Shown one piece after another: positions 10,471 through 32,262 of a stretch of DNA of 64,000 bases. Position numbers and translations under genes: made by a program. This stretch comes from Clostridium saccharobutylicum DSM 13864 (GTDB lineage Bacteria > Bacillota > Clostridia > Clostridiales > Clostridiaceae). Each line of letters starts with the position of its first letter. The stretch's first letter is position 1. The notes below the pieces were generated by a model, which saw only the letters and a list, made by a program, of their open reading frames with translations, was not told the origin of the DNA and ran no database searches. The DNA is taken from NCBI RefSeq assembly GCF_000473995.1, contig NC_022571.1:2945416-3009415 (forward strand). The letters are read 5' to 3'.

Positions 10471-11958
10471 CTATTTTTTTGATCCAATATAATGAATTAT
10501 TAATGCTAAAATTGTAAATACTACAGGTCCTGCAATCATTACAATCGTTGATGTATAATCACCTTTAAGTGACGGTTCTATAATTGTAAATATATTAGCA
10601 AATCCAACCGTAGCAGTAACTATAACAGCCACAATTACTGCTATGTTCTTATTTTTAAAAACTACAAATGGTTTTAATATACTATCTTTCTTCTTAAATG
10701 AAATAAAGGCTGTTGATAAAAATAGATATGGTAATGTCATAGCAACATTTGTCATTAAAATTAACATTTCAAAAAATGCTTTAGCATTTTTTCCACCCAT
10801 TGATATAAGTAATACCATAACTACAACTATTATTGTTTGAATAATCATAGCATTTATTGGCATTCCACTTTCATCTATTTCAGCCATTTTTCCTGGCCAT
10901 AACTTAGCTGGTGTTCCTTCTATTAATTGCTTAAGTGGTGCATATGACAACGTAAAAAATGCACCTGTTAAGGATAAAAACATTGATAAACCTACGAATC
11001 TAGCAACCCAATTACCCATTTGAATGCATATTGAATTACTCAAACCAAGTGAATTTCCTAGTGTAAATCCTAAATTATTCATAACAACATAAGCTACATT
11101 AGCCATGTTTACATTATCTCCTACTAATACACTGCTCCACTTTGTAAATACACCTACACAGAAAATTCCAAGTGAATAACCAATAGATATAACTACTGCT
11201 GCAATTGTTATTCCTTTCGGAAATGTCTTTTCAGCATTTTCAGTTTGATCAACAAGTCCCCCAACTGCTTCAATACCTCCAAATGCAAAAATTGCAAAAA
11301 CCAAGAATGAAAGCATGGAACTAGTACTAGAATATGCTGGATTTGGTGAATTAACAAATGACATTGTTGATGTAATTTGCTCTGCAAGTTGTCCTTTATT
11401 TAAAATAAGTACTATACATGCTCCAACTATTAATACTACATTCAATAATGCACATGCAATTCCACCTATTGATGTAAATTTAGTAATTTTGCTCATCCCT
11501 TTTTTTGAGATTAAAAATACTACCGTTACCCAAATAGATCCTAATATTCCAATAGTTTTTGTAGAACTTAATCCGAGCAGACTCCAAGTTGATGTTATAT
11601 CAACTCCAAAAATTGTATTTGATAATGGAATCCAAATAGTTGAACATATGTTAGTCATCCAAATTATATAAGATGCATACCACATAAATATTCCCACAAA
11701 TGCAAATTTAGGCCCTACTGATTTCTCCATCCAAGAATATATACCTCCCTTTTCATCTTTGAAGGCTGCGCCATATTCCGCCATCATAAAAGCATAAGGT
11801 ATAAAAAATGTTATAGCTCCTAGTATAAACCAAGGAATTGCCCCATATCCCATAAGGTAATATGATCTTGGCATATTAGCGAACCCAAATACTGATGTGA
11901 AAATCATAAGAATTAATGTCAATAGTGTCAGCTTTTTCTGTTTTTCAGTGTTTTCCAT
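10471..11958 (-). CDS. yjeM: YjeM-like amino acid antiporter (APC superfamily)
   Basis: A 495-residue membrane transporter with about 12 hydrophobic segments. The N terminus (LTLILMIFTSVFGFANMPRS) and MMAEYGAAFKDEKGGIYSWM fit the glutamate/GABA antiporter family, and the sequence most resembles YjeM. The substrate is likely an amino acid exchanged for its metabolite, but nothing in the context says which. No decarboxylase gene is adjacent. AAGGAG precedes the ATG. Monocistronic. Confidence 0.85.
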   Translation of the reverse strand: MENTEKQKKLTLLTLILMIFTSVFGFANMPRSYYLMGYGAIPWFILGAITFFIPYAFMMAEYGAAFKDEKGGIYSWMEKSVGPKFAFVGIFMWYASYIIWMTNICSTIWIPLSNTIFGVDITSTWSLLGLSSTKTIGILGSIWVTVVFLISKKGMSKITKFTSIGGIACALLNVVLIVGACIVLILNKGQLAEQITSTMSFVNSPNPAYSSTSSMLSFLVFAIFAFGGIEAVGGLVDQTENAEKTFPKGITIAAVVISIGYSLGIFCVGVFTKWSSVLVGDNVNMANVAYVVMNNLGFTLGNSLGLSNSICIQMGNWVARFVGLSMFLSLTGAFFTLSYAPLKQLIEGTPAKLWPGKMAEIDESGMPINAMIIQTIIVVVMVLLISMGGKNAKAFFEMLILMTNVAMTLPYLFLSTAFISFKKKDSILKPFVVFKNKNIAVIVAVIVTATVGFANIFTIIEPSLKGDYTSTIVMIAGPVVFTILALIIHYIGSKK

Positions 11959-12043
11959 ATTTGTTTTACTCCTTACTTTTTAAATTTTTCATGTGTTAAA
12001 ATGAAGTTTGAGTCTTATCTAATTATCACATTTATGATTTGTT

Positions 12044-12100
12044 TTAGGCATATGAAAGAAAATAGCAAGTCCAACATGCCTTAATTGCAAGGTGTAAATT
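12044..12100. repeat. Dispersed inverted-repeat element, remnant (copy A)
   Basis: TTTAGGCATATGAAAGAAAA followed by TAGCAAGTCC matches the terminal repeat of the complete copy at 21068-21229. No second end is found nearby, so this is a remnant or a strongly diverged copy. Confidence 0.45.
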
Positions 12101-12445
12101 ACTTCTTCTTATGTTAGTCTAATTTAAGCTTAATCCTTATTGCTAGAATTTTATAATCACAACTTTATTTTTTCCCCAATCGTGCATTATAATTTTTTAA
12201 ATAAATGTAACTTAATCTAAAGAAATAACTCTTAAAATTATTCTCTTTAACTTATTTACTCACACGAATATATACTTCTAAATATTACTATTAATTTTTT
12301 TCTAAATCAAACATACCATTTATATACATTGATAATTAATTATCATTTTCTTTGTTATTTACTCAAAATTCATTATATATTTTAAACAATATATAATTTA
12401 TAACTCAACTCATTAATTTGTTTATATTAAATCAATGTAAAAATA

Positions 12446-12487
12446 AAGAGAGTAGCAAATAATATTTCTACTATTTGTTACTCTCTC
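12446..12487. terminator. Stem-loop terminator
   Basis: AGAGAGTAGCAAATA ... TATTTGTTACTCTCT gives a 15-bp stem downstream of the minus-strand small membrane protein. Confidence 0.75.
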
Positions 12488-12576
12488 AAAGTTATAATTG
12501 TAAAGCAGTTATTTATATTATAATATAGTTTCCTTGACATTAGCTGAACATGTATAAAATCAATTTTTTTATAACT

Positions 12577-12819
12577 CTATTCATTGATTAGTTTTATAAA
12601 ATTTTCATTTTTCATTAATATTGAAACATATGCAATTGAAATTGCAAGTACTATGTTTAATATAGGTATTAGTCCAATTATAATTAAAGTCATAAACACT
12701 TTCCAACTATATTTTCCACCCATTGATTTTATATTATTCTTATTTACTAATACTCTAATAAATAAAAATATTAAAGATATGCAGCTTAATACTATTGATA
12801 TTGAATATAGATATAACAC
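12577..12819 (-). CDS. Small membrane protein (80 aa)
   Basis: Two clear hydrophobic segments, YSISIVLSCISLIFLFIRVL and VFMTLIIIGLIPILNIVLAI, joined by a basic loop (NKNNIKSMGGKYSWK) that is probably cytoplasmic. The best start is GTG, ten bases after AAAGGAG; a TTG nine bases upstream is too close to that site. Family unknown. It lies downstream of a lipoprotein gene with a short gap, but I see nothing that ties their functions. Confidence 0.6.
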   Translation of the reverse strand: MLYLYSISIVLSCISLIFLFIRVLVNKNNIKSMGGKYSWKVFMTLIIIGLIPILNIVLAISIAYVSILMKNENFIKLINE

Positions 12820-19681: not shown

Positions 19682-20296
19682 TTACTCTAATTGACTCGAA
19701 TTATTTTCATTTATATCTATTTCTTCTTGAATATCCTCGTGCCCAAATAAGTCCAATGAAGGAAGTTCTTCTAAATCTCTTAATTCAAATTGTCTTAAAA
19801 ATTCCTCCGTAGTCCCATATAAAATTGGTCTTCCTGGAACTTCTAATCTACCAACTTCTTTTATCAATTCTTTTTCTACTAACCTTTGAATAGCACTCTC
19901 AGATTTTACACCTCTTATTTCGTCTATATCAATTCTAGTTATTGGTTGTTTGTATGCTATTATAGCCAAACTTTCTATTGATGCTTGAGATAAAGATTGT
20001 CTTTTATTTTTCTTCAAAAGTTTTTGAATATAATCTGCATTTTCTGATTTAGTAACTAGTTGATAGCCTCCTTTTATGCATATTATCTTTATTCCCCTAA
20101 TTGGTTTATCATATTCCTCCATCATCTCTTGAATAAGAATTTCGATAAGTTTAGATTTTTCTTCAAGATGATTTGCTAAATCATTTAAACTTAAAGGTTC
20201 ACCACTGGCAAATAATAAAGATTCTATAGCTGATTTTAAAGAATTTTTTCTCATATCATCTATAAAAGGAATTTGAATTGCTTTACTATTAGACAT
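19682..20296 (-). CDS. scpB: Segregation and condensation protein B
   Basis: ScpB, 204 residues, the winged-helix subunit of the SMC-ScpAB condensin that compacts and separates chromosomes. Family stretches include SAIESLLFASGEPLSLNDLA, SLAIIAYKQPITRIDIDEIR and GRPILYGTTEEFL. I chose the ATG after GAGGAGAGAAGAAG; it overlaps the scpA stop by eight bases (ATGTCTAA), giving translational coupling. The usual downstream gene rluB is not here. Confidence 0.93.
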   Translation of the reverse strand: MSNSKAIQIPFIDDMRKNSLKSAIESLLFASGEPLSLNDLANHLEEKSKLIEILIQEMMEEYDKPIRGIKIICIKGGYQLVTKSENADYIQKLLKKNKRQSLSQASIESLAIIAYKQPITRIDIDEIRGVKSESAIQRLVEKELIKEVGRLEVPGRPILYGTTEEFLRQFELRDLEELPSLDLFGHEDIQEEIDINENNSSQLE

Positions 20297-21035
20297 CTTC
20301 TTCTCTCCTCTCAATTATTATCTTCATAAAACTATCGCTTTGATAAACCTTAACCATCCTTTGTTTAATCATTTCAAGTAATGCTAAAAAGGTTACAATT
20401 CGCTCTAATTTGCATTCGCAATCTCTTGCAAGATCTTCAAAATCATTAACATCTCCTTTTTTTAATCTCTCTAGGATTATCTGCTGCTTGTCTTCTATTT
20501 TATATTTATCAACATAAATTTTCTTTTGTATAACATTATTTCTATTCTGTTTATTATTATAAATCTCTAGCAGATTGTTATATATATTATATAATTCTAA
20601 AAGACTTGTATTTTTGAATAAATCCTCTTTGGCATTACTTTGTTTCCTTTCTTCTATTATTTCTGGTTTTTTTCCATATACTTCTCCTGCACTAATATAT
20701 CTATCCTTAAAAAATTGTGATACACCTTTTATTTTCTTATAAACTATAAGCTTTTCAAGAAGGTTCTTTTCTTCATCCTCTTCGTTTTCCTCTTCTTTTT
20801 TTGGCTTAGGTAATAGATACTTAGATTTTATTTCTATTAATGTAGCTGCAACTACAATAAATTCAGATGTAATTTCTAAATCCATCTCTTTCATAGTATT
20901 AAGATAATTTAGATATTGATTAGTTATCTCATATATTTTTACATTATATATACTCATTTGATTTTTCTTTATTAAATGTAATAATAAATCAAAAGGACCT
21001 TCAAAGTCATTAATTTTAATTTTCGGAAGTTCCAT
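20289..21035 (-). CDS. scpA: Segregation and condensation protein A
   Basis: ScpA kleisin, 248 residues, bridging the SMC heads with ScpB. The N terminus PKIKINDFEGPFDLLLHLIK is the family signature, followed by a helical region and a C-terminal winged helix (CKLERIVTFLALLEMIKQRM). GGAGGAGG precedes the ATG. First gene of the scpAB pair. Confidence 0.93.
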   Translation of the reverse strand: MELPKIKINDFEGPFDLLLHLIKKNQMSIYNVKIYEITNQYLNYLNTMKEMDLEITSEFIVVAATLIEIKSKYLLPKPKKEEENEEDEEKNLLEKLIVYKKIKGVSQFFKDRYISAGEVYGKKPEIIEERKQSNAKEDLFKNTSLLELYNIYNNLLEIYNNKQNRNNVIQKKIYVDKYKIEDKQQIILERLKKGDVNDFEDLARDCECKLERIVTFLALLEMIKQRMVKVYQSDSFMKIIIERREEDV

Positions 21036-21067
21036 ATAATACCTCCTCCATCATAGGTTTCCAAAGC

Positions 21068-21229
21068 TAAGGCACATGAAAATAAATAACAATTCCAAAG
21101 TACCATTGATATTTTTCATTAGGCAAGGATGGAAATTCTCCCCACAGCGGACTATTAGGTCAATTTGCCGATGCAGGACGATGAAAAATAGGCTGGCAAA
21201 TGAACTTGCTATTTTTTGAATGTGTCTAA
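21068..21229. repeat. Dispersed inverted-repeat element, complete (copy B)
   Basis: 162-bp element. The left end TAAGGCACATGAAAATAAAT plus AACAA is the imperfect inverted repeat of the right end, which reads TTAGACACATTCAAAAAATA on the other strand. Internal ATTTTTCATTAGG and CGATGAAAAATA are a second complementary pair. It has no reading frame. The shape is that of a miniature transposable element. Confidence 0.65.
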
Positions 21230-21289
21230 AGTTTAGTCATAATTACTTCACAATATATAATAACAATTTATATTGTTCAAAACAAGAAA

Positions 21290-21336
21290 AATAACCTTAT
21301 ATAGTATAACTAAACATTCTACTATAAAGGTTATTC
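21290..21336 (-). terminator. Stem-loop terminator
   Basis: AATAACCTTATATAGTA ... TACTATAAAGGTTATT, downstream of the minus-strand carboxypeptidase gene. Confidence 0.8.
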
Positions 21337-21368
21337 ATTCTTTTATAATCTAAATTAAATTTATAACA

Positions 21369-22562
21369 TTATACACCCTTTTTAAATAAATTTTTAATGT
21401 TATATTTTATGTTATCTAAGAAGTTACCCTTCTTTATATTTCTATCAGAATATACTTCTACTTCTCCTACTTTTTCATCATTTAAATAAACTTCACATTT
21501 ACCAATAACTTCTCCAGCTTTGTATTCTTTCTTAGTTTCATCTAGAATTATTTTCTTTACTAAATTATTACTTGCTCCTTTTGGTACTACTACAGTCAAA
21601 TCATCCTTTGCCATAGCTATAAAGAATTTATCTGTTTGTTCATCCATACATACTTTTTGCAATTCTTCATCTTTAGCCACAATCTTTTTACCCTCATATT
21701 TTGAAAAACCATAATTGAGCAATACTCCTGCATCACGATTTCTTATTTTATAGGTTGGTGCTCCCATAATTACAGATAACATTCTTACACCATTTCTTGT
21801 TGCTGTTGCACTTATACAATATTTAGCCTCATTTGTAAATCCTGTTTTTAGTCCATCGCAACCATCAAAAAACCTAACTAATTTATTATGATTTACTAGT
21901 TCTATTGGTGATTTTCTTCCCTCTGATATAGAATCCATGTATGTTCCTGTATATTTTAATACTTTAGGATGTTTTAATAATTCCATAGACATTTTTGCTA
22001 TATCATTTGCAGTTGATAAGTGACCATCTGCTGGTAACCCATTACAATTTTTAAATGTTGTATTCTTCATACCAATCTCTTGTGCTCTTTTGTTCATCAT
22101 AGCAACAAAGTCTGGTTCTGTTCCTCCGAGATATTCTGCAAGTGCAACAGCCGCATCATTTCCTGACGCTATTGCAACACCTTTTAGAAGTTCCTCTACG
22201 GTTCTTATTTCACCAGTTTCTAAAAGCATTGTGCTTCCACCCATCTTTTTAGCATTTTCACTGCATGTTACTTTATCATCTAAGCTAATTTTCCCATTAT
22301 CTACAGCTTCCATAGTAAGCAACATAGTCATTATTTTTGTTACAGATGCTGGAGCAAATTTTTCATCTGCATTTTTTTCATAAAGTATCTTTCCAGTTGT
22401 AGGTTCCATTAATAAAGCCGATTTAGCTTCTATTTGAGTTCCATCAGATTTTTCTTCATCTTTTAAAGTTGCAGCATTTACTAAATTACTAATTGGTAAA
22501 AGCAATATTGTAAAAATAAATATCAAAGTAAAAGATATGATTCTTTTAATGTTATTTTTCAT
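21369..22562 (-). CDS. dacF: D-alanyl-D-alanine carboxypeptidase (PBP5/DacF family, full length)
   Basis: Exported PBP5-type enzyme of 397 residues that removes the terminal D-Ala of peptidoglycan stems. Signal peptide to about residue 31; catalytic SVTK at 73-76, SGNDAAVALAEYLGG near 133 and KTGFTNEA near 239. The C-terminal PBP5_C beta domain (KDDLTVVVPKGASNNLVKKI) and a basic amphipathic tail that could bind the membrane are present. GGGAGG precedes the ATG. DacF is likely by length and clostridial context; other paralogues cannot be excluded. Confidence 0.88.
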   Translation of the reverse strand: MKNNIKRIISFTLIFIFTILLLPISNLVNAATLKDEEKSDGTQIEAKSALLMEPTTGKILYEKNADEKFAPASVTKIMTMLLTMEAVDNGKISLDDKVTCSENAKKMGGSTMLLETGEIRTVEELLKGVAIASGNDAAVALAEYLGGTEPDFVAMMNKRAQEIGMKNTTFKNCNGLPADGHLSTANDIAKMSMELLKHPKVLKYTGTYMDSISEGRKSPIELVNHNKLVRFFDGCDGLKTGFTNEAKYCISATATRNGVRMLSVIMGAPTYKIRNRDAGVLLNYGFSKYEGKKIVAKDEELQKVCMDEQTDKFFIAMAKDDLTVVVPKGASNNLVKKIILDETKKEYKAGEVIGKCEVYLNDEKVGEVEVYSDRNIKKGNFLDNIKYNIKNLFKKGV

Positions 22563-22726
22563 TTTTACTTCCTCCCTTCAAAATTAGTGTTACCATGTGA
22601 AGAAAATAATATCACAAGTAACTCTAATTTCTTCTAAAAATTCTACAGGAAATTTTTATTATTTTTTGATTTATGAACCATATAATAATTTCTTTTACAC
22701 AATATAAATACACTCTTAATAAATGC

Positions 22727-22762
22727 AAAAAAGATGTAGCAAATTATCTACATCTTTATATA
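22727..22762 (-). terminator. Stem-loop terminator
   Basis: AAAGATGTAG ... CTACATCTTT with an AAATTAT loop, downstream of the minus-strand regulator. Confidence 0.8.
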
Positions 22763-22801
22763 TTAAAAACATTATATTAATTTTGTATATTGAAACATAA
22801 T

Positions 22802-23767
22802 TTATGTTTTCGCAAGTATTTTACCAATATCTTTTAAATCATATCCTCCTAAACTTTCGACTTCCTTTTTAAATTCCTCACTTCGAACTGTGCTTAGTAT
22901 CAATTTATATATTGGATATTTTAAATCAGATTCTCTAATTACTAAATCGTATCTTTCTTCTTGAAGTGGAATAAAATCAATTCCATCAACTGTATTTGCT
23001 ATATTTTCATTTCCAATTCCAACATTTCCTTCGCCTCTAGCTATACTTCTAGCCACTGCAAAATGAGATTGTTTTTCTATATCATATCCATTAACTTGTT
23101 CCTTACTTATATTGTTTAATCTCAACTTTTCATCTAACAAAATTCTAATTCCAGAACCTTTTTCTCTATTAATCATAGAGATATTTGATTTAGTTAGGTC
23201 CTTCCATTTATTGATCTTATAAGGATTTCCTTTTGTTACATAAAACCCAACATTCCTATATGCTAAATTTATAATAAAACAAGATACTCCAGGAAGCATT
23301 TTTCTGACAAAAGCAGTATTGTATTCATCAGTATCACCATCCCATAAATGTACCGATGAAACAGAAATTTTATCGTTATACAAATCATAAAGGCTTGCAT
23401 AACTTCCTGTATTTGATCTAAGCACTCTCATATCATTAACTTTTTCTCTAATATGTTCTGCCAAAACATCTAATATTACATCTTGCCCAGATATTATAAT
23501 ATCATTTGGATTTTCTAAATTTAAAACATTATTAGTATATGTTTGCTTAGTTAATTCACTATTTAAAATAATGTTTTTATTTCTATTGCTTTTAGAAATC
23601 TTTTGATTATTTATATAATTTTCAACATCATCTCTATCTATTCTTAATTTTTTTCCTACTTTATAGCCAGGCAACTCCCCACGCTTAACTAATTCGTACA
23701 CAGTATTTTTAGTTATTTTAAGTAATTCAGCAACATCCACTGCTGTTAGGGATTTCTCTGAATCCAT
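22802..23767 (-). CDS. HTH regulator with periplasmic-binding-like ligand domain (molybdate/tungstate-type)
   Basis: A 321-residue one-component regulator. The N terminus is an excisionase/MerR-like helix-turn-helix (SLTAVDVAELLKITKNTVYE LVKRG). From about residue 80 it is a substrate-binding-protein-like domain (SNTGSYASLYDLY, EKGSGIRILLDEKLR, VARSIARGEGNVGIGNENIA). This build is found next to molybdate or tungstate transporters in anaerobes, and here it is divergent from modA. It probably senses the oxyanion or its cofactor and controls the mod genes. GGAGGG precedes the chosen ATG; the longer upstream frame has no such site. Confidence 0.8.
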   Translation of the reverse strand: MDSEKSLTAVDVAELLKITKNTVYELVKRGELPGYKVGKKLRIDRDDVENYINNQKISKSNRNKNIILNSELTKQTYTNNVLNLENPNDIIISGQDVILDVLAEHIREKVNDMRVLRSNTGSYASLYDLYNDKISVSSVHLWDGDTDEYNTAFVRKMLPGVSCFIINLAYRNVGFYVTKGNPYKINKWKDLTKSNISMINREKGSGIRILLDEKLRLNNISKEQVNGYDIEKQSHFAVARSIARGEGNVGIGNENIANTVDGIDFIPLQEERYDLVIRESDLKYPIYKLILSTVRSEEFKKEVESLGGYDLKDIGKILAKT

Positions 23768-23972
23768 AGAATTCCCTCCTTCTTCAATAATATATAATTC
23801 TAACATTTAAAAGATAAAATTTCTAGCAATAATATCAAACTAATAACAAAATAAGTTAATATATTGAATTTTATTATAATTAATGCTAGTATTATAAAAG
23901 CAAACCAAACATGATAAAACATAACAAAACAGAACTATATTAATTTTAAATAATGAATGCGAGGTTTTACTT

Positions 23973-24776
23973 ATGAAAAAGAAAATAGGTGCTATTACCA
24001 TATTAACTTTAATGATAACATCATTACTTATAGGTTGTGGTGCCCCAAATACTTCATCAACCAAATCTAACGATACTACTACTGAAAATTCTATACAATT
24101 AAATATTTCTGCTGCTGCCAGTTTAAAAGAAGCAATGACAGATATACAAGCTGAATTCAAAAAGACTAAACCTAATGTTACTTTAACTGTTAATTATGGA
24201 GCTTCTGGATCTCTTCAACAACAAATAGAACAAGGTGCTCCTTGTGATGTATTTATTTCTGCTGGTCAAAGTCAAATGGAAGCATTAGATAAAAAATCAT
24301 TAATCCTTGAAAATACTAAAAAAGATTTAGTTAAAAATGATTTAGTCTTAGTTGGTCCAAAAGATACAACTTTAACAAATCTTTCTGACTTAACAAGTGA
24401 CAAAGTTAAAAAGATTGCAGTTGGAGAACCTAAAAGTGTACCGGCTGGACAATATGCGGATGAAGTTTTTACTAAACTTGGTATTAAAGATTCTGTATCG
24501 TCAAAACTTGTTTTTGCTAAGGATGTAAAAGAGGTTCTTGCTTGGTCAACATCTGGAAATACTGAAGTAGGATTTGTTTATAAAAGTGATGCTTTAAGTA
24601 GTAATTCTTGTAAAATAATCGAAACAGTTCCTGAAGACAAGCATTCTCCTATAACTTATCCAATTGGGGTAATAAAGTCTAGCAAAAATTCTGAAGATGC
24701 AAAAGCCTTTGAAGATTTCTTATTTACTGATACATGTAAGAAAATCTTTGAAAAATATGGTTATGGATTAGCATAA
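23973..24776 (+). CDS. modA: Molybdate ABC transporter substrate-binding lipoprotein
   Basis: ModA, 267 residues, the extracellular molybdate (or tungstate) binding protein. It has a signal peptide with lipobox LLIGC (Cys about 23), then ISAAASLKEAMTDIQAEFKK, NYGASGSLQQQIEQGAPCDV, PAGQYADEVFTKLG and a C-terminal DTCKKIFEKYGYGL, all typical of the family. The ATG follows GAGG. The rest of the transporter lies 564 bases downstream; the gap is filled by two large hairpin elements. Confidence 0.92.
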   Translation: MKKKIGAITILTLMITSLLIGCGAPNTSSTKSNDTTTENSIQLNISAAASLKEAMTDIQAEFKKTKPNVTLTVNYGASGSLQQQIEQGAPCDVFISAGQSQMEALDKKSLILENTKKDLVKNDLVLVGPKDTTLTNLSDLTSDKVKKIAVGEPKSVPAGQYADEVFTKLGIKDSVSSKLVFAKDVKEVLAWSTSGNTEVGFVYKSDALSSNSCKIIETVPEDKHSPITYPIGVIKSSKNSEDAKAFEDFLFTDTCKKIFEKYGYGLA

Positions 24777-24785
24777 CAAAAAATC

Positions 24786-25030
24786 TTAAACTTATGTGGT
24801 AACTTACCGAAAGTAAGTGGATTCTTTTGCTCGATTGCTATAGAATATTGCTATGGATTTCTAACAGTAATAGTTGTTCCATTCCAGCATGCTCCCGAGA
24901 CAAGCTTGTGACAAGCAAGAATGGAACAACTATTACTGAACAAATACCTATAACAATATTCTAAACGCAATTCTACGCAAAAGAATCCACTTACTTTCTA
25001 GTATATAATATATTTCAAAGCATAAATCTA
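24786..25030 (+). repeat. Long-hairpin element, copy 1
   Basis: Starts TTAAACTTATGTGGTAACTT and ends CATAAATCTA, which form a short inverted terminal repeat. Between them, 24809-24998 is one giant palindrome. The outer 22 bp of the arms (GAAAGTAAGTGGATTCTTTTGC) pair perfectly, and the inner arm AGTAATAGTTGTTCCATTC pairs exactly with its partner. The loop holds GCTTGTGACAAGC. No reading frame. Confidence 0.8.
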
Positions 25031-25071
25031 GTTAATAAATTATTTATCTCTCTAGATATCCAATTTATGAA

Positions 25072-25321
25072 TCACACTTATGGTTTGAATATATATCCAA
25101 AACTAGAAATAGAGGTCATGCTTTTGTGTAGTGTTACCTCAGAAAATTTTGATAACTATGCTTCTTAGATTGCAAGTTGTACCCACATATGCTTGCTCAC
25201 AGCGTATCTGGGAAGCAAGCATTGTGGGTACAACTTGCAATCTTAGAAGCATCTATCAAAATTTTCAGTAACCGAAACAAATGCATGACCTCTATTTCGG
25301 TTAGCTATAACATAAGTCTAA
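25072..25321 (-). repeat. Long-hairpin element, copy 2 (inverted)
   Basis: Same architecture in the opposite orientation. The palindrome is 25106-25298, with GAAATAGAGGTCATGC at its outer end and TTGCAAGTTGTACCCACA in the inner arm. The flank CATAAGTCTAA at the right matches the left end of copy 1. It stops right before the modB ribosome binding site. Arm sequences differ from copy 1, yet each arm matches its own partner. Confidence 0.8.
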
Positions 25322-25340
25322 TTTAAAAGGAGGATTATAT

Positions 25341-26018
25341 ATGGATTTTACGCCTTTATGGATTTCTATAAAAACAGCTGTATTAGCAACAATAATAACA
25401 TTTTTTTTAGGCATTGCAATTTCTTATTGGATGGCAAATTACAAAGGAAAATGTAAAGGAATAATAGATGGTCTATTTACTTTACCTCTAATTCTTCCTC
25501 CAACTGTTGTAGGATTCTTTTTATTGCTTATCTGTGGTAAAAATGGCCCAGTTGGAAGGATATTAGAACTTTTTAATACATCATTAATCTTCACTTGGAC
25601 TGCTACAGTAATAGCAGCCATAGTAGTTTCATTTCCTATGATGTATAGAACTACTCGTTCTGCTTTTGAACAAATAGATACTAATATTTTATTTGCTGCT
25701 AGAACACTTGGTTTAAGCGAATTTAAAGTTTTTTATAAAATTGCTATTCCTTTAGCTATGCCTGGAATTATAGGCGGATTAGTATTATCTTTTGCAAGAG
25801 CTATGGGAGAATTTGGTGCAACACTTATGTTAGCTGGAAATATTCCAGGAAAAACTCAAACTATGCCTCTTGCAATATTCTTTGCTGCTGAAGGTGGAGA
25901 TATGCAAAAAGCTATACTTTGGGTTATTATAATTGTTACTTTATCATTATTTTTAATTTTAATAATGAACTATTTTTCTGAATCCCACTTAAAACTGCTT
26001 GGAAGGAGAGCTAAATAA
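25341..26018 (+). CDS. modB: Molybdate ABC transporter permease
   Basis: ModB, 225 residues, with five to six membrane segments. The cytoplasmic EAA loop that contacts the ATPase is visible: AARTLGLSEFKVFYKIAIPLAMPG. GEFGATLMLAGNIPGKTQTM is a ModB signature. AAAGGAGG precedes the ATG. It overlaps modC by one base and is separated from modA by two hairpin elements, so it may rely on readthrough or on its own promoter. Confidence 0.93.
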   Translation: MDFTPLWISIKTAVLATIITFFLGIAISYWMANYKGKCKGIIDGLFTLPLILPPTVVGFFLLLICGKNGPVGRILELFNTSLIFTWTATVIAAIVVSFPMMYRTTRSAFEQIDTNILFAARTLGLSEFKVFYKIAIPLAMPGIIGGLVLSFARAMGEFGATLMLAGNIPGKTQTMPLAIFFAAEGGDMQKAILWVIIIVTLSLFLILIMNYFSESHLKLLGRRAK

Positions 26019-27064
26019 TGTCGCTGTATGTAAACATAGAAAAGCATCTTCCCTCATTTGATTTAAAGATCAATTTTGAACATAAAAAAGGTGTATTAGG
26101 TTTTTTAGGTGCATCTGGTTCTGGAAAAAGTATAAGTCTTAAATGCATATCAGGATTAGTTTCGCCATCTAAAGGAGAAATAATTGTTAATGATAAAGTT
26201 TTTTATGATTCTGAAAATAAGATTAACTTAAACTGTCAAAATAGAAAAGTTGGTTATCTTTTTCAAAATTATGCTCTTTTCCCTAATATGAATATAATTG
26301 ATAATATTGAAGCCGGGGTTTCTAATATTAGCAGCAAAAAACGTAAATCTCTAACTAAAGAATACATTGAGAGATTTCACTTAGAAGGACTTGAAAAACA
26401 TTATCCTTGGCAATTATCAGGTGGCCAGCAGCAAAGGGTTGCTTTAGCTAGAGCACTTATAACCTCTCCTGATATTTTACTTTTAGATGAGCCATTTTCT
26501 GCTTTAGATCAGCATTTAAGAAATAATCTAGAAAAAGAGCTAATGGATATAGTAAAAAATTATAGTGGTAATGTAATCTTTGTTACCCATGATATAAATG
26601 AAGCCTATAGAGTTTGTGATGATATAATTGTTTATGAAAATGGAGTATCTCTAGAAAAAAGAGATAAAAAAGATTTATTTAACTACCCTAAGACACTTTC
26701 TGAAGCAACTTTAACTGGCTGCAAGAACATCTCAAAAGCTAGAAAAACTAGTAATAATACCATTTATGCTGAAAATTGGGGACATGAATACACTATAAAT
26801 AACGAAGTCCCTGAAAACATTGAATACATTTGTATAAGAGCTCACAATATAGAGGTATGTACATATAACAATGCGATTAACACATTTCCTTACATAGTTG
26901 ATAATATTGTAGAAAATCCATTTGAGTTTACTATTTATTTAAAAAATAGTATTAACCCTAATTCTAACTTAGTCGAGTTTAAAACAGAGAAAAAGAATAT
27001 GAGCTTTTCGCTAAATGATACAGTATATCTAAAATTTTCATCAGATCATTTATTTTATTTTTAG
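26018..27064 (+). CDS. modC: Molybdate ABC transporter ATP-binding protein
   Basis: ModC, 348 residues, the ATPase of the molybdate importer. Walker A GASGSGKS (about 32-39), Q-loop LFQNYALFPNM, signature LSGGQQQRVALARAL, Walker B ILLLDEPFSALD and switch His FVTHD are intact. The C-terminal 110 residues match the position of the oxyanion-binding MOP/TOBE domain but are poorly conserved. The start overlaps the modB stop (TAATG), so translation is coupled. Confidence 0.93.
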   Translation: MSLYVNIEKHLPSFDLKINFEHKKGVLGFLGASGSGKSISLKCISGLVSPSKGEIIVNDKVFYDSENKINLNCQNRKVGYLFQNYALFPNMNIIDNIEAGVSNISSKKRKSLTKEYIERFHLEGLEKHYPWQLSGGQQQRVALARALITSPDILLLDEPFSALDQHLRNNLEKELMDIVKNYSGNVIFVTHDINEAYRVCDDIIVYENGVSLEKRDKKDLFNYPKTLSEATLTGCKNISKARKTSNNTIYAENWGHEYTINNEVPENIEYICIRAHNIEVCTYNNAINTFPYIVDNIVENPFEFTIYLKNSINPNSNLVEFKTEKKNMSFSLNDTVYLKFSSDHLFYF

Positions 27065-27091
27065 ATTATACATAGATATCCAAATCAAGAT

Positions 27092-27290
27092 TTAGATTTA
27101 TGTAGTAACTTATCGAAAATAATGGTACTGTTTCACACAGCATTGAATTTAGAATATTGTTATAGCTATTTCTTCAGTAAAAGTTGTTTCATTCTTACTT
27201 GTCACAAGCTTGCATTTAGGAGCATGATGGAATGGTTTGACCACATTCTCCTATATGATTTTAATACAATTCTCTCTAATTCAAATTTAA
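27092..27290 (+). repeat. Long-hairpin element, degenerate copy 3
   Basis: Starts TTAGATTTATGTAGTAACTT, then ATCGAAAATAA, matching the left end of copy 1. The left arm TTTAGAATATTGTTATAG and AGTTGTTTCATTC is almost identical to the right arm of copy 1 in reverse complement, and CTTGTCACAAGCTTG is the inverted loop. The right arm has decayed, so the hairpin no longer closes well. Confidence 0.65.
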
Positions 27291-27292
27291 TA

Positions 27293-27808
27293 TTAAGATA
27301 GCCATTTACTAAATGATGCCATAAATTTATGTATGATAACTAAATTGACCACCATAATTATAAAACCTAAAATAGAATATAAAATAACTGTATTTATGGT
27401 AAATAATTTCATCATGTAGTTGATAATATAAATGCAAATAGGCAAACAAATAATGCTTGTAACAATGGCAGGAATATATTTTTTTACTATTAATGTTTGA
27501 ACGCAATGTATTATTAAGTGTAAAGTAAATGCAATAAGCAATCCCATCCATAAACTATACATATTCATTACATAAGAGAAAATTGTAATTATACTAATCA
27601 AAATAAACTCTTCCGCTACTCCAAAAGCAAAAGATGATGTTGTAATATTATCAAAATGAGGCAATAACCTTTTCGATAACATTGGAAATCTTTCATATAA
27701 ATAATGCCTATTTTTACTTATCCAATATTCTATAAAAATTATTTCTTCAAAATCATGAAAAATGAAAATGATAGGAAAAAGCCATAGAATTACCTGGATG
27801 TTATTCAT
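27293..27808 (-). CDS. HXXEE domain membrane protein
   Basis: A 171-residue integral membrane protein of the HXXEE family (PF13787). The family motif is visible as FHDFEE near the N terminus, with AFGVAEEF and LHLIIHC in later segments. About five hydrophobic helices. These His/Glu residues could form a metal site in the membrane, but the function is unknown. GAGGTG precedes the ATG. It stands between the mod and moa genes without obvious link to molybdenum. Confidence 0.75.
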   Translation of the reverse strand: MNNIQVILWLFPIIFIFHDFEEIIFIEYWISKNRHYLYERFPMLSKRLLPHFDNITTSSFAFGVAEEFILISIITIFSYVMNMYSLWMGLLIAFTLHLIIHCVQTLIVKKYIPAIVTSIICLPICIYIINYMMKLFTINTVILYSILGFIIMVVNLVIIHKFMASFSKWLS

Positions 27809-27842
27809 TTATAATCACCTCTTAATCTACTATTATACAAAA

Positions 27843-27880
27843 ATAATTATGGTATTATATACATATAACACCATAATTAT
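27843..27880. terminator. Stem-loop between mog and HXXEE genes
   Basis: ATAATTATGGTATTATAT ... ATAACACCATAATTAT, a stem of about 16 bp with few mismatches. It lies downstream of mog but lacks a clear T run. Confidence 0.55.
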
Positions 27881-27919
27881 ATTGCGTTACAAATAATTAA
27901 ACTAAAACTAAAAAATTAA

Positions 27920-28411
27920 TTATTTCCTTGCACAGTTAGTGGCTTGTCCTGTCAATATTTCTAAACCATGTTTAAGTTCAGTTATAATATATTCTAGACA
28001 TTCTGTCACTGCCTTTGGACTTCCAGGTAAATTAATTATTAATGTGTTTTTACGTATTGTTGCTACAGCACGGCTTAGCATAGCTCTTTTAGTAAATTGC
28101 AAACTATATGCTCTCATAGCTTCTGGTATACCTGGAACACTTCTTTCTCCTATTTCCATAGTTGCTTCTGGCATACAATCTCTTGGTGAAAAACCTGTAC
28201 CTCCTGTTGTTAAAATAAGGTCTGCAATATGATTATCACAAACTCGTTTCATTTCAGCACTAAGCATATTTTGCTCATCTGGCAATAATATTGTATGTAC
28301 AACTTCAAATTCATTTTCTTCAACTATTTTTTTTATAACCGGACCACTTTTATCTTCTCTAATACCTGCATATCCACTGTCACTTGAAGTGATTATAGCT
28401 ACTTTGAACAT
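27920..28411 (-). CDS. mog: Molybdopterin adenylyltransferase / MogA-MoaB type
   Basis: A 163-residue MoCF-fold protein. Motifs LTTGGTGFSPRDCMPEAT and NLPGSPKAVTECL match MogA/MoaB, which adenylates molybdopterin before Mo insertion by MoeA. TAGGAGATGA precedes the ATG. The start lies inside the end of the MOSC gene (13-base overlap), so it is the last gene of the moaA-side operon. Confidence 0.9.
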   Translation of the reverse strand: MFKVAIITSSDSGYAGIREDKSGPVIKKIVEENEFEVVHTILLPDEQNMLSAEMKRVCDNHIADLILTTGGTGFSPRDCMPEATMEIGERSVPGIPEAMRAYSLQFTKRAMLSRAVATIRKNTLIINLPGSPKAVTECLEYIITELKHGLEILTGQATNCARK

Positions 28412-28830
28412 ACTAGATCATCTCCTACTTTAATTTTTCCACCATGTATTACTCTTGCAAAGACTCCTTCTCTAGGCATAATACAATCTCCAACTCTCTT
28501 ATATATTTCACAATGCGCATGACACTCTTTACCAACTTGAGTGAGCTCTAAAACAACATCATTACATTTAAATATTGTTCCTATAGGTAAAGTTTTAAAA
28601 TCAATTCCTTCAACTAAGATATTTTCTCCAAAAGCTCCATCTTCCACATCTCCGCCTTTAGCATTAAAATCAAGTACTCTATTATAAGATAGTAGACTTA
28701 CTTGTCTATGCCAATTTCCGCCATGAGCATCATTTTCTAATCCAAATCCCTCAATAATATTACACTCACCTATATTTTTCTTTGCTGTTCCTCTCTTTTC
28801 ACTTATACAAATAGCAATAATTTTACCCAT
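28399..28830 (-). CDS. MOSC domain protein
   Basis: A 143-residue MOSC-domain protein, the fold found at the C terminus of Mo cofactor sulfurases. Visible features: GKIIAICISEKRGTAKKNIG, NDAHGGNWHRQVSLLS, the conserved region DGAFGENILVEG and the expected Cys in VGKECHAHCEIY. Stand-alone MOSC proteins in Mo cofactor operons may pass sulfur or cofactor to target enzymes. TAGGAG lies nine bases before the chosen ATG. Confidence 0.87.
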   Translation of the reverse strand: MGKIIAICISEKRGTAKKNIGECNIIEGFGLENDAHGGNWHRQVSLLSYNRVLDFNAKGGDVEDGAFGENILVEGIDFKTLPIGTIFKCNDVVLELTQVGKECHAHCEIYKRVGDCIMPREGVFARVIHGGKIKVGDDLVCSK

Positions 28831-28916
28831 TATACATTCTCCTAACTTTATGTAAATTACATCTTTAAAATTCAAATAGACATAGTCAAAAATATTATTA
28901 ACCGTATTAAAATTTA

Positions 28917-29900
28917 TCAGCCACCTATTTCTGACATTATATGTTTTTCAAAATCTTCATGAGAATTGATTTCTAAAAATCTATTCTTTCGTGGTTTATT
29001 ATAAATTGTGGTTTTAATAGCATCTATTAATTCCTCTTGATTTTCTCCGTCACTTATCATTTTTTTCAAATTTATACCTTTATCATATTGTAAGCAAGTT
29101 TTTAAAAATCCTCTTGAAGTGAGACGAACTCTATTGCATTTATCACAAAACTTATGGCTAACCGCACTAATAAATCCTATTTTTCCTTCAAAATCTTCTA
29201 AACTATAATAATGGCTTGGACCATTGCCTAATGATTTATTAAATGGAGTAAGCTCTCCAAATTCTTCTTCAATAATTTCTTTTATTTCATCTTCACCTAA
29301 GCCATTCATTTTTTTTCCAAGTCCAATAGGCATAAGCTCAATAAATCTAACATTTAATTTTTTATTTTTTGCCATCTTCGTTATATCTAATATTTGCTTA
29401 CCATTTGTCCCGTCTATAGGTACACAATTTATTTTTACAGTGAGATTCTTGTATTCTAAAGCTTTATTTATTCCTCTTATTACACTACTTACATTTCCAA
29501 TACGAGTAATATATTTATATGTACTTTCATCTAATGCATCAATGCTCACATTAACTGCATCTAATCCTGCTTTAACTAAAGAATCAATTTGTTCTTCTAA
29601 CAATATTCCATTTGTAGTTAAAGTAACATTATTAATTCCATTTATATTTTTTATTTTCTCAATAAGATATGCTAAATCGCTTCTTACTAACGGTTCTCCC
29701 CCTGTTATTTTTATTTTACTAATTCCAATCTTTGCAAAAGCTTCACATAAATGAATAATTTCTTCATATGATAATATTTCACTGTGGTTTACGCTCTTTA
29801 TTCCATCTTCTGGCATACAATAAATACATCTTAAATTACATCTATCAGTAACTGAAATTCTTATGTAATCAATCTTCCTATTATAAATGTCAATCATCAT
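28917..29900 (-). CDS. moaA: GTP 3',8-cyclase (radical SAM)
   Basis: MoaA, 327 residues, the first step of molybdopterin synthesis together with MoaC. The radical SAM cluster motif is CNLRCIYC (near residue 21), the SAM motif is KITGGEPLVR, the C-terminal cluster motif is CDKCNRVRL ... KTCLQ, and the protein ends in the catalytic Gly-Gly tail (SEIGG). GGAGGTG precedes ATGATG. It overlaps the mobB stop by four bases. Confidence 0.94.
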   Translation of the reverse strand: MMIDIYNRKIDYIRISVTDRCNLRCIYCMPEDGIKSVNHSEILSYEEIIHLCEAFAKIGISKIKITGGEPLVRSDLAYLIEKIKNINGINNVTLTTNGILLEEQIDSLVKAGLDAVNVSIDALDESTYKYITRIGNVSSVIRGINKALEYKNLTVKINCVPIDGTNGKQILDITKMAKNKKLNVRFIELMPIGLGKKMNGLGEDEIKEIIEEEFGELTPFNKSLGNGPSHYYSLEDFEGKIGFISAVSHKFCDKCNRVRLTSRGFLKTCLQYDKGINLKKMISDGENQEELIDAIKTTIYNKPRKNRFLEINSHEDFEKHIMSEIGG

Positions 29901-30403
29901 TGCACCTCCTTACACTCATTAAGTAATACTTCTATAATTTCCCCAATATTATTTATATTAATAGTTTTTATACCCTCAAACTTACATTCTAAATCAGTAA
30001 CTATTGCAATCAAACTTTCCTTTTTACCGATATAATCTTTTGATATCCCTTTTCTTACAACTTCTATTTTAGGATAATCAGAATATTTAAACCCCTCCAG
30101 TAAAATAATATCTGCCTCTGGAAAATAATTAAATAATTCATTTTCAGAAATTTGATTTTGTTCCTTTACTATCATAAATTTAGTTTTTGAAAAAATAGCA
30201 CTTCCATATGCTCCTGCTTCTTTGTGTTTATATGAATCCGTTCCCTCTATATCACTTTGAAAATCATGTCCATCATGTTTAATCGTAGCAACTTTATAGC
30301 CTAAATCTATCAATCTTGGTATTAATTTTGTTATAAGAGTTGTCTTTCCTGAATTTTTAATACCGCTTACTGCAATTAACATAGGCTTTTTATTATTTTT
30401 CAT
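29897..30403 (-). CDS. mobB: Molybdopterin-guanine dinucleotide synthesis protein B
   Basis: MobB, 168 residues, a small P-loop GTPase: Walker [16 protein letters not shown], then [20 protein letters not shown] and [17 protein letters not shown]. It assists MobA in making the MGD form of the cofactor used by the nitrate reductase in this locus. It overlaps both neighbours (moaC by 11 bases, moaA by 4), so the three are one translational unit. Confidence 0.92.
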
Positions 30404-30875
30404 TTATGAATTCTCCACTTTTTCCACCTGTTTTCCTTGTCAAATGAACTTCAGAAATCTCCATAGTTTTATCTATTGCCTTACACATATCATAAATCGT
30501 TAGAAGTGTTACATTAACTCCTGTTAAAGCTTCCATTTCCACACCTGTCTTACCTTCTACTTTAACAGTACAAATAGCCTCTATATAATTTTCTTCTTCA
30601 TTTATTTTAAAGTCTACGCTGCATTTACTAATCATTAATGGATGACACATTGGAATTAACTCTGAGGTTCTTTTTACTCCCATTATTCCAGCAACTCTAG
30701 CTACTCCAAGTACATCTCCTTTTTTAACAGTTTGATTTAAAATTGCTTCCATGACATTTTCATTCACAAAAATTTTTCCACTTGCAATCGCTGTTCTTGA
30801 TGTTATGTTTTTTTCCGAAACATCAACCATAACGGCATTTCCATTGCAATCAAAATGATTAAACTTATTTTCCAT
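30393..30875 (-). CDS. moaC: Cyclic pyranopterin monophosphate synthase
   Basis: MoaC, 160 residues. Family stretches: [63 protein letters not shown] and a C-terminal KTGGKSG. It converts the MoaA product into cyclic pyranopterin monophosphate. AAGGATG precedes the ATG. A repeat element lies in the 181 bases between it and moeA. Confidence 0.94.
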
Positions 30876-30945
30876 ATATTACACATCCTTAAAATTCACT
30901 TTTTCATTTTAAAATATACTTTTATGTTTTAAATAAACACCTAAA

Positions 30946-31042
30946 TAAGACATATAAAAATAAATAACAAGGCCTAATTTGCCATAGATATTTTTCATTG
31001 GACAAAAAGATAAATAGAATTGCTATTTTTGAACATATCTAA
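30946..31042. repeat. Dispersed inverted-repeat element (copy C)
   Basis: 97 bp. The left end TAAGACATATAAAAATAAAT plus AACAAGG and the right end, read on the other strand, TTAGATATGTTCAAAAATAG, are imperfect inverted repeats of the family defined by copy B. Internal TTGCCATAGATATTTTTCAT is shared with copy B. It lies inside the moeA-moaC gap. Confidence 0.6.
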
Positions 31043-31056
31043 TATGTACAGTTTCT

Positions 31057-32262
31057 TTACAATAAAATAACTTCTACTTTATCACCTTTATTTAATTTTA
31101 GTGTTCCCTCACTCACATCTATTAAACAATTACATCCAACCATAGATGCAAGCATTCCTGAAGAATGTTTATTTTCAACAAATCTAACTTTTCCATCATT
31201 AAAATAAGCTCTTATAAATCTTCTTCTAACACTTGGTTTATTAAATTCATCTTCCATAATTCCTATGACTTTTTTAGTATACAAATTTTTATTTTGTGTT
31301 ATTTTACCCAATATAGGTCTTGCTAGAAGTTCAAATGTTGTTAGTGCTGCAAAAGGATTACCCGATAAAGATAATATTGGCTTATTCTTATATAACGAAT
31401 ACATTGCTGGAGTTCCAGGCTTTAAATTAACTTTCCAAAACAATCTTTTAGCTCCTATTAAAGGCAATGCATCATGCAAAATGTCTTTTTGTCCCACCGA
31501 TACTCCGCCTGTGGTAATTATAAGATCTACGTTGTCAACAATTTCACAAATCCTTTTACTAACCTTTTCACCAGAATCTCCAATTATTTCATAAATAATT
31601 GGCTTTAATCCAAACTCATTTAATCTAGAATATAACAAGTGTAAATTGCTATCATATATTTTACCTTCTTTTAATGATTCTCCTGGAATTCCAACCTCAT
31701 CTCCAGTAACAAGTAAAGCAATTCTAGGTTTAGATTTTACTTTAATCTTTGTAATTCCCATACTTGAAAGGATACCAATATGAACATAAGTAATTAGTTC
31801 ACCTTTTTTTATTAATAAATCTTCCTCTTTTATATCTTCACCCGCGAAACAATAATTATCATACTCAGAAAGTTCTTTATAAATCTCAACTTTATCTTCT
31901 CCATAATTGGTTTGTTCCTGCCTTATTACACAATTAGCACCTTTAGGCATTTTAGCACCTGTCATAATCCTTATTGCTTCACCTTTTTTAATAGTTCTTT
32001 TACTATCTCCACCTGCATATATAACATCTACAACAGTTAATGTTTTAATGTTTTCTTTGCTTGCTCCCTTCGTATCATCTGCTATAAGTGCATATCCATC
32101 AAGAGGTGAACGATCAAATGGAGGATTATTCATAGGCGCATAAATATCTTCTCCACTTATTCTTCCACAAGCATCTATTAACTCAATTTCATCAAAATCT
32201 GTAGTTTCTTCTATACTTTGAGTCATTAGCTCAATAGCTTCTTCTAATTCTACATTAAGCAC
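31057..32262 (-). CDS. moeA: Molybdopterin molybdenumtransferase
   Basis: MoeA, 401 residues, inserts molybdate into adenylated molybdopterin. Features: APMNNPPFDRSPLDGYALIA, RIMTGAKMPKGANCVIRQE, ALLVTGDEV, VDLIITTGGVSVGQKD and LSLSGNPFAALTTFELL. The start is GTG after AAAGGGG. It begins three bases after the MoeA-like paralogue, so the two are cotranslated. Only one MoeA of this type is expected, so the neighbouring paralogue probably has a different substrate. Confidence 0.93.
   Translation of the reverse strand: MLNVELEEAIELMTQSIEETTDFDEIELIDACGRISGEDIYAPMNNPPFDRSPLDGYALIADDTKGASKENIKTLTVVDVIYAGGDSKRTIKKGEAIRIMTGAKMPKGANCVIRQEQTNYGEDKVEIYKELSEYDNYCFAGEDIKEEDLLIKKGELITYVHIGILSSMGITKIKVKSKPRIALLVTGDEVGIPGESLKEGKIYDSNLHLLYSRLNEFGLKPIIYEIIGDSGEKVSKRICEIVDNVDLIITTGGVSVGQKDILHDALPLIGAKRLFWKVNLKPGTPAMYSLYKNKPILSLSGNPFAALTTFELLARPILGKITQNKNLYTKKVIGIMEDEFNKPSVRRRFIRAYFNDGKVRFVENKHSSGMLASMVGCNCLIDVSEGTLKLNKGDKVEVILL

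What the first reader, a model, noticed from the sequence alone, without database searches (positions are those of the whole stretch)
24786..27290. Three long-hairpin elements inside the molybdate transport locus, with arms that covary
Two full copies (24786-25030, and 25072-25321 inverted) fill the whole modA-modB gap, and a decayed third copy follows modC. Each is almost wholly one palindrome of about 190 bp. The ends (TTARAYTTATG), the flank before CCGAAA, the CTAGAAA side and the loop are shared between copies. The arms differ between copies 1 and 2, yet within each copy the two arms match each other. That is unlike a simple miniature transposon and suggests either selection on the folded RNA/DNA or repair that copies one arm onto the other. 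The hairpins could also set the ratio of modA to modBC mRNA or act as RNase III sites.
Basis: partly seen in the sequence, partly recalled or inferred. Interest (0 to 1): 0.75.

Follow-up and report, generated by a model that had tools for sequence, protein, structure and literature searches.

The report
Clostridial jumping hairpins with matching arms
These long hairpins look like copies of a small, numerous jumping element of clostridia that shares its ends with a known kind of transposon; their arms match between spreading copies, while settled copies seem to drift like ordinary DNA.

Summary
They belong to a family with at least 146 places in this 5.1-Mb genome (150 candidates scored) and matches in 10 of 58 relatives searched, all in the same genus. 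Arm covariation is strong: 39 of 63 pairs change on both sides. The full ends are TATAGATAAAC or TATAGATATCC; the best match the end of an IS630/Tc1-mariner-type insertion sequence of Clostridium beijerinckii HUN142 at 30 of 31 bases. So these are IS630-type miniature transposons. Five relatives examined lack them between modA and modB. In eight hairpins shared by two sister species the arms drift about independently (12 double changes, 8.7 expected), whereas copies within the genome show 149 against 40.5. Covariation therefore seems to arise in the propagating lineage, not in resident copies. An asymmetric internal loop persists in 130 of 130 aligned copies, which argues for a kept fold rather than whole-arm copying. 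Copies tend to sit just after stop codons in one orientation. A modA/modBC regulatory role is untested. New variant of a known kind: RUP-like ends with REPIN-like hairpin covariation.

The parts
24786..25052 (+). Copy 1, plus orientation. Core hairpin 24807-25001; outer left repeat decayed beside the modA stop (24776); right outer repeat about 25037-25052.
   Evidence: CM match 226 bits; fold z -15.6; alignment; end position read
25053..25321 (-). Copy 2, inverted. Core 25103-25300; right outer end TAGATATCC starts at 25053 and abuts copy 1 tail to tail; left end lies next to the modB ribosome-binding region.
   Evidence: CM match 154.6 bits; fold z -17.0; right end read mismatches in 31 to the IS630-type end
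27073..27290 (+). Copy 3, relic. Left outer repeat TAGATATCCAAATC... starts 9 bp downstream of the modC stop (27064); interior (27138-27285) reads in the opposite sense; no fold.
   Evidence: CM 35.9 bits on minus strand; fold z 0.22; inverted match of 24901-25013 to 27100-27212; left end 6 mismatches in 31 to the IS630-type end
23973..24776 (+). modA-like solute-binding protein; its stop codon precedes copy 1
   Evidence: PF13531 E 2.2e-58
25341..26018 (+). modB-like permease
   Evidence: PF00528 E 1.1e-23
26018..27064 (+). modC-like ATPase; its stop codon precedes copy 3
   Evidence: PF00005 E 1.4e-29

Best explanation
The hairpins are resident copies of a non-autonomous IS630/Tc1-mariner-type miniature transposon. 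SHOWN: high copy number; ends shared over about 30 bp with an IS630-type element that encodes a DDE_3 transposase; presence and absence of hairpins at the same places in sister species; roughly independent drift of arms in eight orthologous copies; excess double changes between paralogous copies. INFERRED: an IS630-type transposase recognises the shared outer ends and inserts the element at a TA; one copy can join next to another at the TATA formed by two ends. Lineages that keep spreading keep a long stem with asymmetric internal loops, either because the folded form helps propagation or because some step of copying re-matches short stretches of the arms. Once settled, a copy is released from that constraint and its arms decay independently; copy 3 in the window is a late stage of this. 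Copies accumulate directly after stop codons in one orientation, through target choice or through selection against other positions.
For: At least 146 places in the own genome; 10 of 58 other genomes searched, all same genus. The IS630-type end in C. beijerinckii HUN142, TATAGATATCCAACTTAAGAATTAAACTTAT, differs at 1 of 31 bases from the best hairpin ends. In the 0.46 Mb of own-genome stretches held, which were fetched around hairpins, 24 sites have up to 4 mismatches, 19 of them within 100 bp of a hairpin core; the reversed sequence as control gives 0. Full 1.21-kb element, two copies 99.3% identical, ends TATAGATAAACCAACT and TATAGATAAGCCAACT, in Clostridium sp. OS1-26, with HTH_33, HTH_29 and DDE_3. 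No model match in the modA-modB gap of 5 of the 10 relatives, the five examined. Places filled in one sister species only, and tandem copies joined as TTATCTATATAGATAA. Orthologs: 12 both-sided, 8.7 expected, 8 pairs; paralogs: 149, 40.5 expected, 61 pairs; Fisher 0.015 (divergence under 10%) and 2.2e-6 (10-25%). Internal loop of unequal sides in 130 of 130 copies.
Against: A protein search with the HUN142 transposase end matches only 2 of 59 genomes (HUN142 itself and a 60% identical relic with three stops in the own genome), whereas hairpins were found in 11 of 59. A PF13358 search of 8 genomes found matches in 2 and none in the own genome at E 1e-5. The mover is thus inferred from ends shared with another species. 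Only one end of the HUN142 element was seen. No clean TA duplication against an exact empty site was obtained; flanks had diverged. The ortholog test rests on 8 pairs from one pair of species, chosen among 12 compared, and its 12 against 8.7 does not exclude a weak coupling. Cut-and-paste IS630 transposition gives no known reason for a long folded interior. Mismatch load rises only weakly with distance to the nearest copy (Spearman 0.20, P 0.025).
Confidence: 0.7

Rival explanations
1. In-place structural selection on the transcribed RNA: the hairpin works in the 3' untranslated region (mRNA stabiliser, RNase III site, or setting modA against modBC).
For: Nominal left end within 20 bp of a stop codon in 76 of 119 copies with a co-oriented left ORF; orientation bias 59 to 23 in co-directional regions, P 8.7e-5, and 48 of 58 in convergent ones. 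Stems 94.6% paired in 30 copies.
Against: Orthologous arms drift about independently. No G-U excess over A-C in the sense strand, 98 against 124 in well-paired columns; over all 63 columns G-U is 339 and A-C 341, with 125 of the G-U in one column. Absent from the mod locus of the five relatives examined. No terminator-like site found at 24600-25400.
Confidence: 0.13
2. Replication template switching between arms in resident copies (quasipalindrome correction) keeps arms alike without selection.
For: A described process that makes compensatory changes and spacer inversions (PMC8794818, abstract; PMC8604942, abstract start in the listing). Copy 3 has an interior inverted relative to its left end.
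Against: No clear excess of double changes in orthologs. The internal loop was unequal-sided in 130 of 130 copies. Ends and apical loop disagree in orientation in only 4 of 146 copies, with 8 more undetermined; one of the 4 is copy 2 of the window, by a small margin.
Confidence: 0.1
3. Arm matching is produced at the moment of transposition by a folded single-strand or repair-synthesis step that copies short stretches of one arm onto the other; no selection on the fold is needed.
For: The excess of double changes was seen in paralogs only. Transversions are 77 of 167 double Watson-Crick changes but 140 of 449 single ones (sums over the bins), not what stepwise wobble intermediates predict.
Against: Unequal internal loops survive in 130 of 130 copies. 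Some mismatches are shared by many copies, for example columns 68-142 and 80-130 with 41 A-C cells each of 144.
Confidence: 0.25

Closest known systems
RUP (repeat unit of pneumococcus), an IS630-Spn1 miniature transposon
   Same: Non-autonomous, 108 copies, ends matching an IS630-type element, TA in the target (PMC2229807, passages seen)
   Different: RUP is 107 bp; the passages seen name no long hairpin or arm covariation. Here the element is about 290 bp with a 195-bp hairpin core.
REPIN / RAYT system of Pseudomonas
   Same: Mobile hairpin with common compensatory changes on either side (PMC3116915, passages seen)
   Different: REPINs are short REP doublets linked to tyrosine transposases. 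Here the ends are those of a DDE-type IS630 element and the stem is much longer.
ERIC, Correia/NEMIS and Yersinia palindromic repeats
   Same: Intergenic mobile hairpin repeats; orientation matters for the ERIC effect on mRNA, RNase III is proposed to act on NEMIS (PMC2229807, passages; PMC2267715, passages; PMC2649163, abstract start in the listing)
   Different: No similarity known to me (not compared here); no RNA effect was tested here.
ISY100 (Tc1/mariner/IS630)
   Same: Belongs to the family of the inferred mover; inserts almost only at TA and duplicates it (PMC2170065, abstract)
   Different: Autonomous and cyanobacterial; no hairpin interior is mentioned in the abstract.

Membership tests
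[quoted passage not shown]
   146 places; ends TATAGATAAACAA on both sides; found within 3 mismatches on the left in 49, on the right in 83, on both sides in 29 of 146 copies, so many ends are decayed or of the other type
[quoted passage not shown]
   An ORF of 70 or more codons overlaps 10 of 146 copies; coding was not tested further
[quoted passage not shown]
   Absent from the modA-modB gap in the five relatives examined; places filled in one of two sister species
IS630/Tc1-mariner MITE | Ends shared with an IS630-type element encoding a DDE_3 transposase | tested here: met
   1 mismatch in 31 at best; 24 sites with up to 4 mismatches against 0 for the reversed control; DDE_3
IS630/Tc1-mariner MITE | TA duplicated at the target | tested here: inconclusive
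   TA precedes the ends in the consensus and tandem copies share TATA; no exact empty site with unchanged flanks
IS630/Tc1-mariner MITE | Mobilised by the IS630 transposase | not testable with these tools
   Needs a transposition assay; the own genome shows only a relic
REPIN | Compensatory changes between hairpin sides | tested here: met
REPIN | RAYT tyrosine transposase and REP-type ends | not tested
   RAYT not searched; ends are IS630-like instead
Structured regulatory RNA (Rfam) | Match to a curated family | tested here: not met
   0 of 4227 families at gathering score in 20000-32000
Structured regulatory RNA (Rfam) | Wobble-biased, in-place compensatory change | tested here: not met
   (small ortholog sample)

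The most novel reading that the evidence does not exclude
A DDE-type (IS630) miniature transposon whose spread depends on a folded form of the element: the propagating lineage is selected for a long stem with asymmetric internal loops, perhaps read by a protein on single-stranded DNA or RNA, while resident copies are free of that constraint. Copies also land, or survive, in one orientation directly behind stop codons, giving many genes the same kind of hairpin as a 3' tail.
Probability: 0.3. Interest if true: 0.72.

Novelty: new variant of a known kind. Interest (0 to 1): 0.5.

Why it matters
Arm covariation is normally read as strong evidence of a functional RNA. Here a very strong signal (39 of 63 pairs) appears to come from the history of a transposon and is not seen when orthologous copies are compared. 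That is a caution for RNA discovery by covariation among repeats, and a usable test: compare paralogs with orthologs. It also sets a puzzle: why a family with IS630-type ends should keep a structured interior, and why its copies are phased to stop codons.

Tried and rejected
Rfam: no family at gathering score in 20000-32000; two matches far below gathering score at 20950-21350. Plasmid and phage records: no match (records of this genome or near it may be left out there). G-U against A-C as a strand test: the pair types of the 30-copy alignment suggested an A-C excess by eye. The 144-copy count gave 341 A-C against 339 G-U, 125 of these in one column, and the well-paired columns 124 against 98, P 0.09, so no strand is claimed. 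The closest-pair count gives A-C 185 and G-U 121 when summed over its bins; I did not repeat that count without the columns where mismatches are shared by many copies.

Composite-transposon reading of the + - pairs (18 of 28 neighbours within 2 kb): not supported as the general case, because in 22 interiors compared only short pieces (22-83 bp) are shared between unrelated pairs. There is one real exception: in G021 two + - units (L260 about 949-1843 and 11809-12632) are 76% alike over 911 columns, interior included, ending close to the outer ends of the hairpins. A pair may thus have moved as one unit there, or the segment was duplicated. G008 and G034 share one interior because the place is orthologous.

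Whole-arm copying: disfavoured, with the limit that its alignment dropped insertions relative to the 30-copy alignment. Intrinsic terminator: none found at 24600-25400. In one search twelve hairpin pairs were compared; four with 51-64% identity (different elements at the place) were dropped. In one search, 4 of 65 closest paralog pairs, over 25% apart, were left out. The 30-copy alignment is 29 of the 30 loci (L016, with a loop deletion, left out) plus copy 2.

Full report
OBSERVATION. Copies 1 and 2 are as described: 226 and 154.6 bits with a covariance model built from 30 family members, these two included, folding at z -15.6 and -17.0. Copy 3 is a relic: 35.9 bits over 148 bases on the minus strand, with a left end in the plus sense, and no fold (z 0.22). 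Copies 1 and 2 therefore touch tail to tail at 25052/25053, much like a junction (TTATCTATATAGATAA) seen between tandem copies in a relative.

FAMILY. The model finds 146 distinct places in the own genome at E 0.01, from 150 scored rows of which 4 were the same place on the other strand. The first look gave 5994 candidates and 150 were scored, so this is a lower bound. Two sister species have 129 and 112 matches out of 150 scored each, some of these being both strands of one place. No Rfam family at gathering score and no plasmid or phage record matches.

COVARIATION. On 30 copies 94.6% of pair cells are standard; 39 of 63 pairs have both sides changed in at least one copy (20.6 in shuffles), and the score is 0.315 (0.110 in shuffles, at most 0.076 when slid). 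Of the 30, 29 were chosen by similarity to copy 1, and relatedness inflates shuffle contrasts; the slid control keeps relatedness.

WHERE COVARIATION ARISES. Two sister species, G008 and G034, are about 89-98% alike in the shared stretches. Twelve hairpin pairs at matching places were compared; four had 51-64% identity, so different elements occupy the place, and they were dropped. In the eight orthologs both-sided changes were 12 against 8.7 expected if sides change independently (six pairs under 10% divergence: 3 against 2.1; two pairs at 15%: 9 against 6.6). In 61 of 65 disjoint closest pairs of copies within the own genome they were 149 against 40.5 (41 against 10.7 in 39 pairs; 108 against 29.8 in 22 pairs; four pairs over 25% left out). 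Fisher tests of both against one side: 0.015 and 2.2e-6. Resident arms thus drift about independently, whereas lineages linked by copying keep matching arms. The ortholog sample is small, from one species pair and partly of other subfamilies; a weak coupling is not excluded.

WHAT KEEPS THE MATCH. G-U and A-C mismatches are about balanced (98 and 124 in well-paired columns, P 0.09), so there is no sign that a sense RNA strand is what is matched. The internal loop is 3x5 in 97, 4x5 in 28 and 3x4 in 5 of 130 copies scoring about 140 bits or more, never equal-sided (insertions were dropped in that alignment). Copying a whole arm would erase it. Internal-loop columns differ between distant copies as much as paired columns do (0.309 and 0.301), so it is the asymmetry rather than the letters that persists. 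I read this as a fold that is kept in the spreading lineage, or as copying of short stretches only. The two are not separated here.

PARENT. A DDE_3 (PF13358) search in 8 genomes rings in 2, G008 (with stops) and G034. The three G034 matches lie at contig ends, as expected of a repeated insertion sequence. Its right end, reversed, reads TATAGATATCCAACTTAAGAATTAAACTTAT; the best hairpin ends of the own genome read TATAGATATCCAATTTAAGAATTAAACTTAT. In the 0.46 Mb of own-genome stretches held, 24 sites have up to 4 mismatches to the IS end, 19 of them within 100 bp of one of the 146 cores, against 0 for the reversed sequence; these stretches were fetched around hairpins, so the 19 of 24 is not a genome-wide figure. 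The window's copy 2 and copy 3 ends have 5 and 6 mismatches. A search of named genomes with the 96-residue transposase end (33 loci) gave Clostridium sp. OS1-26 with two copies of a 1.21-kb element, 99.3% identical, ends TATAGATAAACCAACT and TATAGATAAGCCAACT, and two overlapping frames with HTH_33/HTH_29 and DDE_3. Against this: the same residues match only 2 of 59 genomes, HUN142 and one relic in the own genome, 60% identical with three stops, although hairpins are in 11 of 59. IS630-type elements insert at TA and duplicate it (PMC2170065, abstract).

INSERTION. The five relatives examined, of ten with mod genes found, lack the element between modA and modB; three of them carry a different AGGCACA repeat there. 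Between the sister species several hairpins are present on one side only, but flanks have changed and no clean duplication could be read.

POSITION. In element orientation the left neighbour is a plus-strand ORF in 119 of 146 copies; classes +E+ 59, +E- 58, -E- 23, -E+ 4, +E? 2. The left end lies within 20 bp of that stop in 76 of 119, the right end within 20 bp of a converging stop in 11 of 81; in convergent regions the left end is nearer its stop in 48 of 58. These use nominal ends 42 and 58 bp outside the core and mechanical ORFs of 70 codons or more. In 39 places of G008 the classes are +E+ 17, +E- 7, -E- 7, -E+ 4 and 4 incomplete, a weaker bias. In the window copy 3 starts 9 bp downstream of the modC stop. 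Target choice and selection are not separated. Of 28 neighbouring pairs within 2 kb, 18 are + -. Their interiors share only short pieces, except two units in G021 that are alike over 911 columns, so movement of a pair as one unit is possible there.

KNOWN KINDS. The nearest are RUP, a 107-bp pneumococcal repeat with IS630-Spn1 ends and TA target (PMC2229807, passages), and REPINs, mobile hairpins with common compensatory changes (PMC3116915, passages). Template switching is a described way to make such changes (PMC8794818, abstract). The present family combines RUP-like ends with REPIN-like covariation in a much longer hairpin. I found no description of it among the rows listed.

VERDICT. A numerous IS630-type miniature transposon of clostridia with an unusually long, structured interior; a new variant of a known kind.

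Noticed in passing
window 21068-21230: A second repeat of about 160 bp with AGGCACA...TGTGTCT ends; many copies at 77-85% identity, seen in eight of the ten relatives in a capped list; repeats with similar ends lie in the modA-modB gap of three relatives. No Rfam match at gathering score.
   Followed up: partly
L286 11080-11425, L285 320-660 and 9440-10194 (G008), L303 11707-11994 (G034): Hairpin copies whose apical loop holds a nested insert, itself palindromic, running from near AAAGTTCGAAGAACGAAA to near TTCGATTCTCACTTTTTGAAC.
   Followed up: no
G000 3634825, 4267691, 3492035, 4839014, 4403133, 3757828, 4131794: Seven copies are 244-252 bases long over the 195-position core, about 50 bases more than usual, as if they hold an insert.
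   Followed up: no
L260 949-1843 and 11809-12632 (G021): Two + - hairpin pairs are 76% alike over 911 columns, interior included: a pair that moved or was duplicated as one unit.
   Followed up: partly
Right flanks of the G000 copies, for example L164: Right flanks of 30-61 of 146 copies per 50-bp bin are repeated at four or more other loci from 100 out to about 550 bp; near G000 3563475 another hairpin, not among the 146, follows.
   Followed up: partly
L290 against L307 and L285 320-660 against L304: Places that carry different, non-orthologous hairpins in the two sister species (51-64% identity, four of twelve compared), as if some places are refilled.
   Followed up: no
window 22802-23806, minus strand: Divergent gene upstream of modA; the protein looks to me like an N-terminal excisionase-type helix-turn-helix followed by a solute-binding-like domain (read, no family search), perhaps a molybdate regulator.
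   Followed up: no
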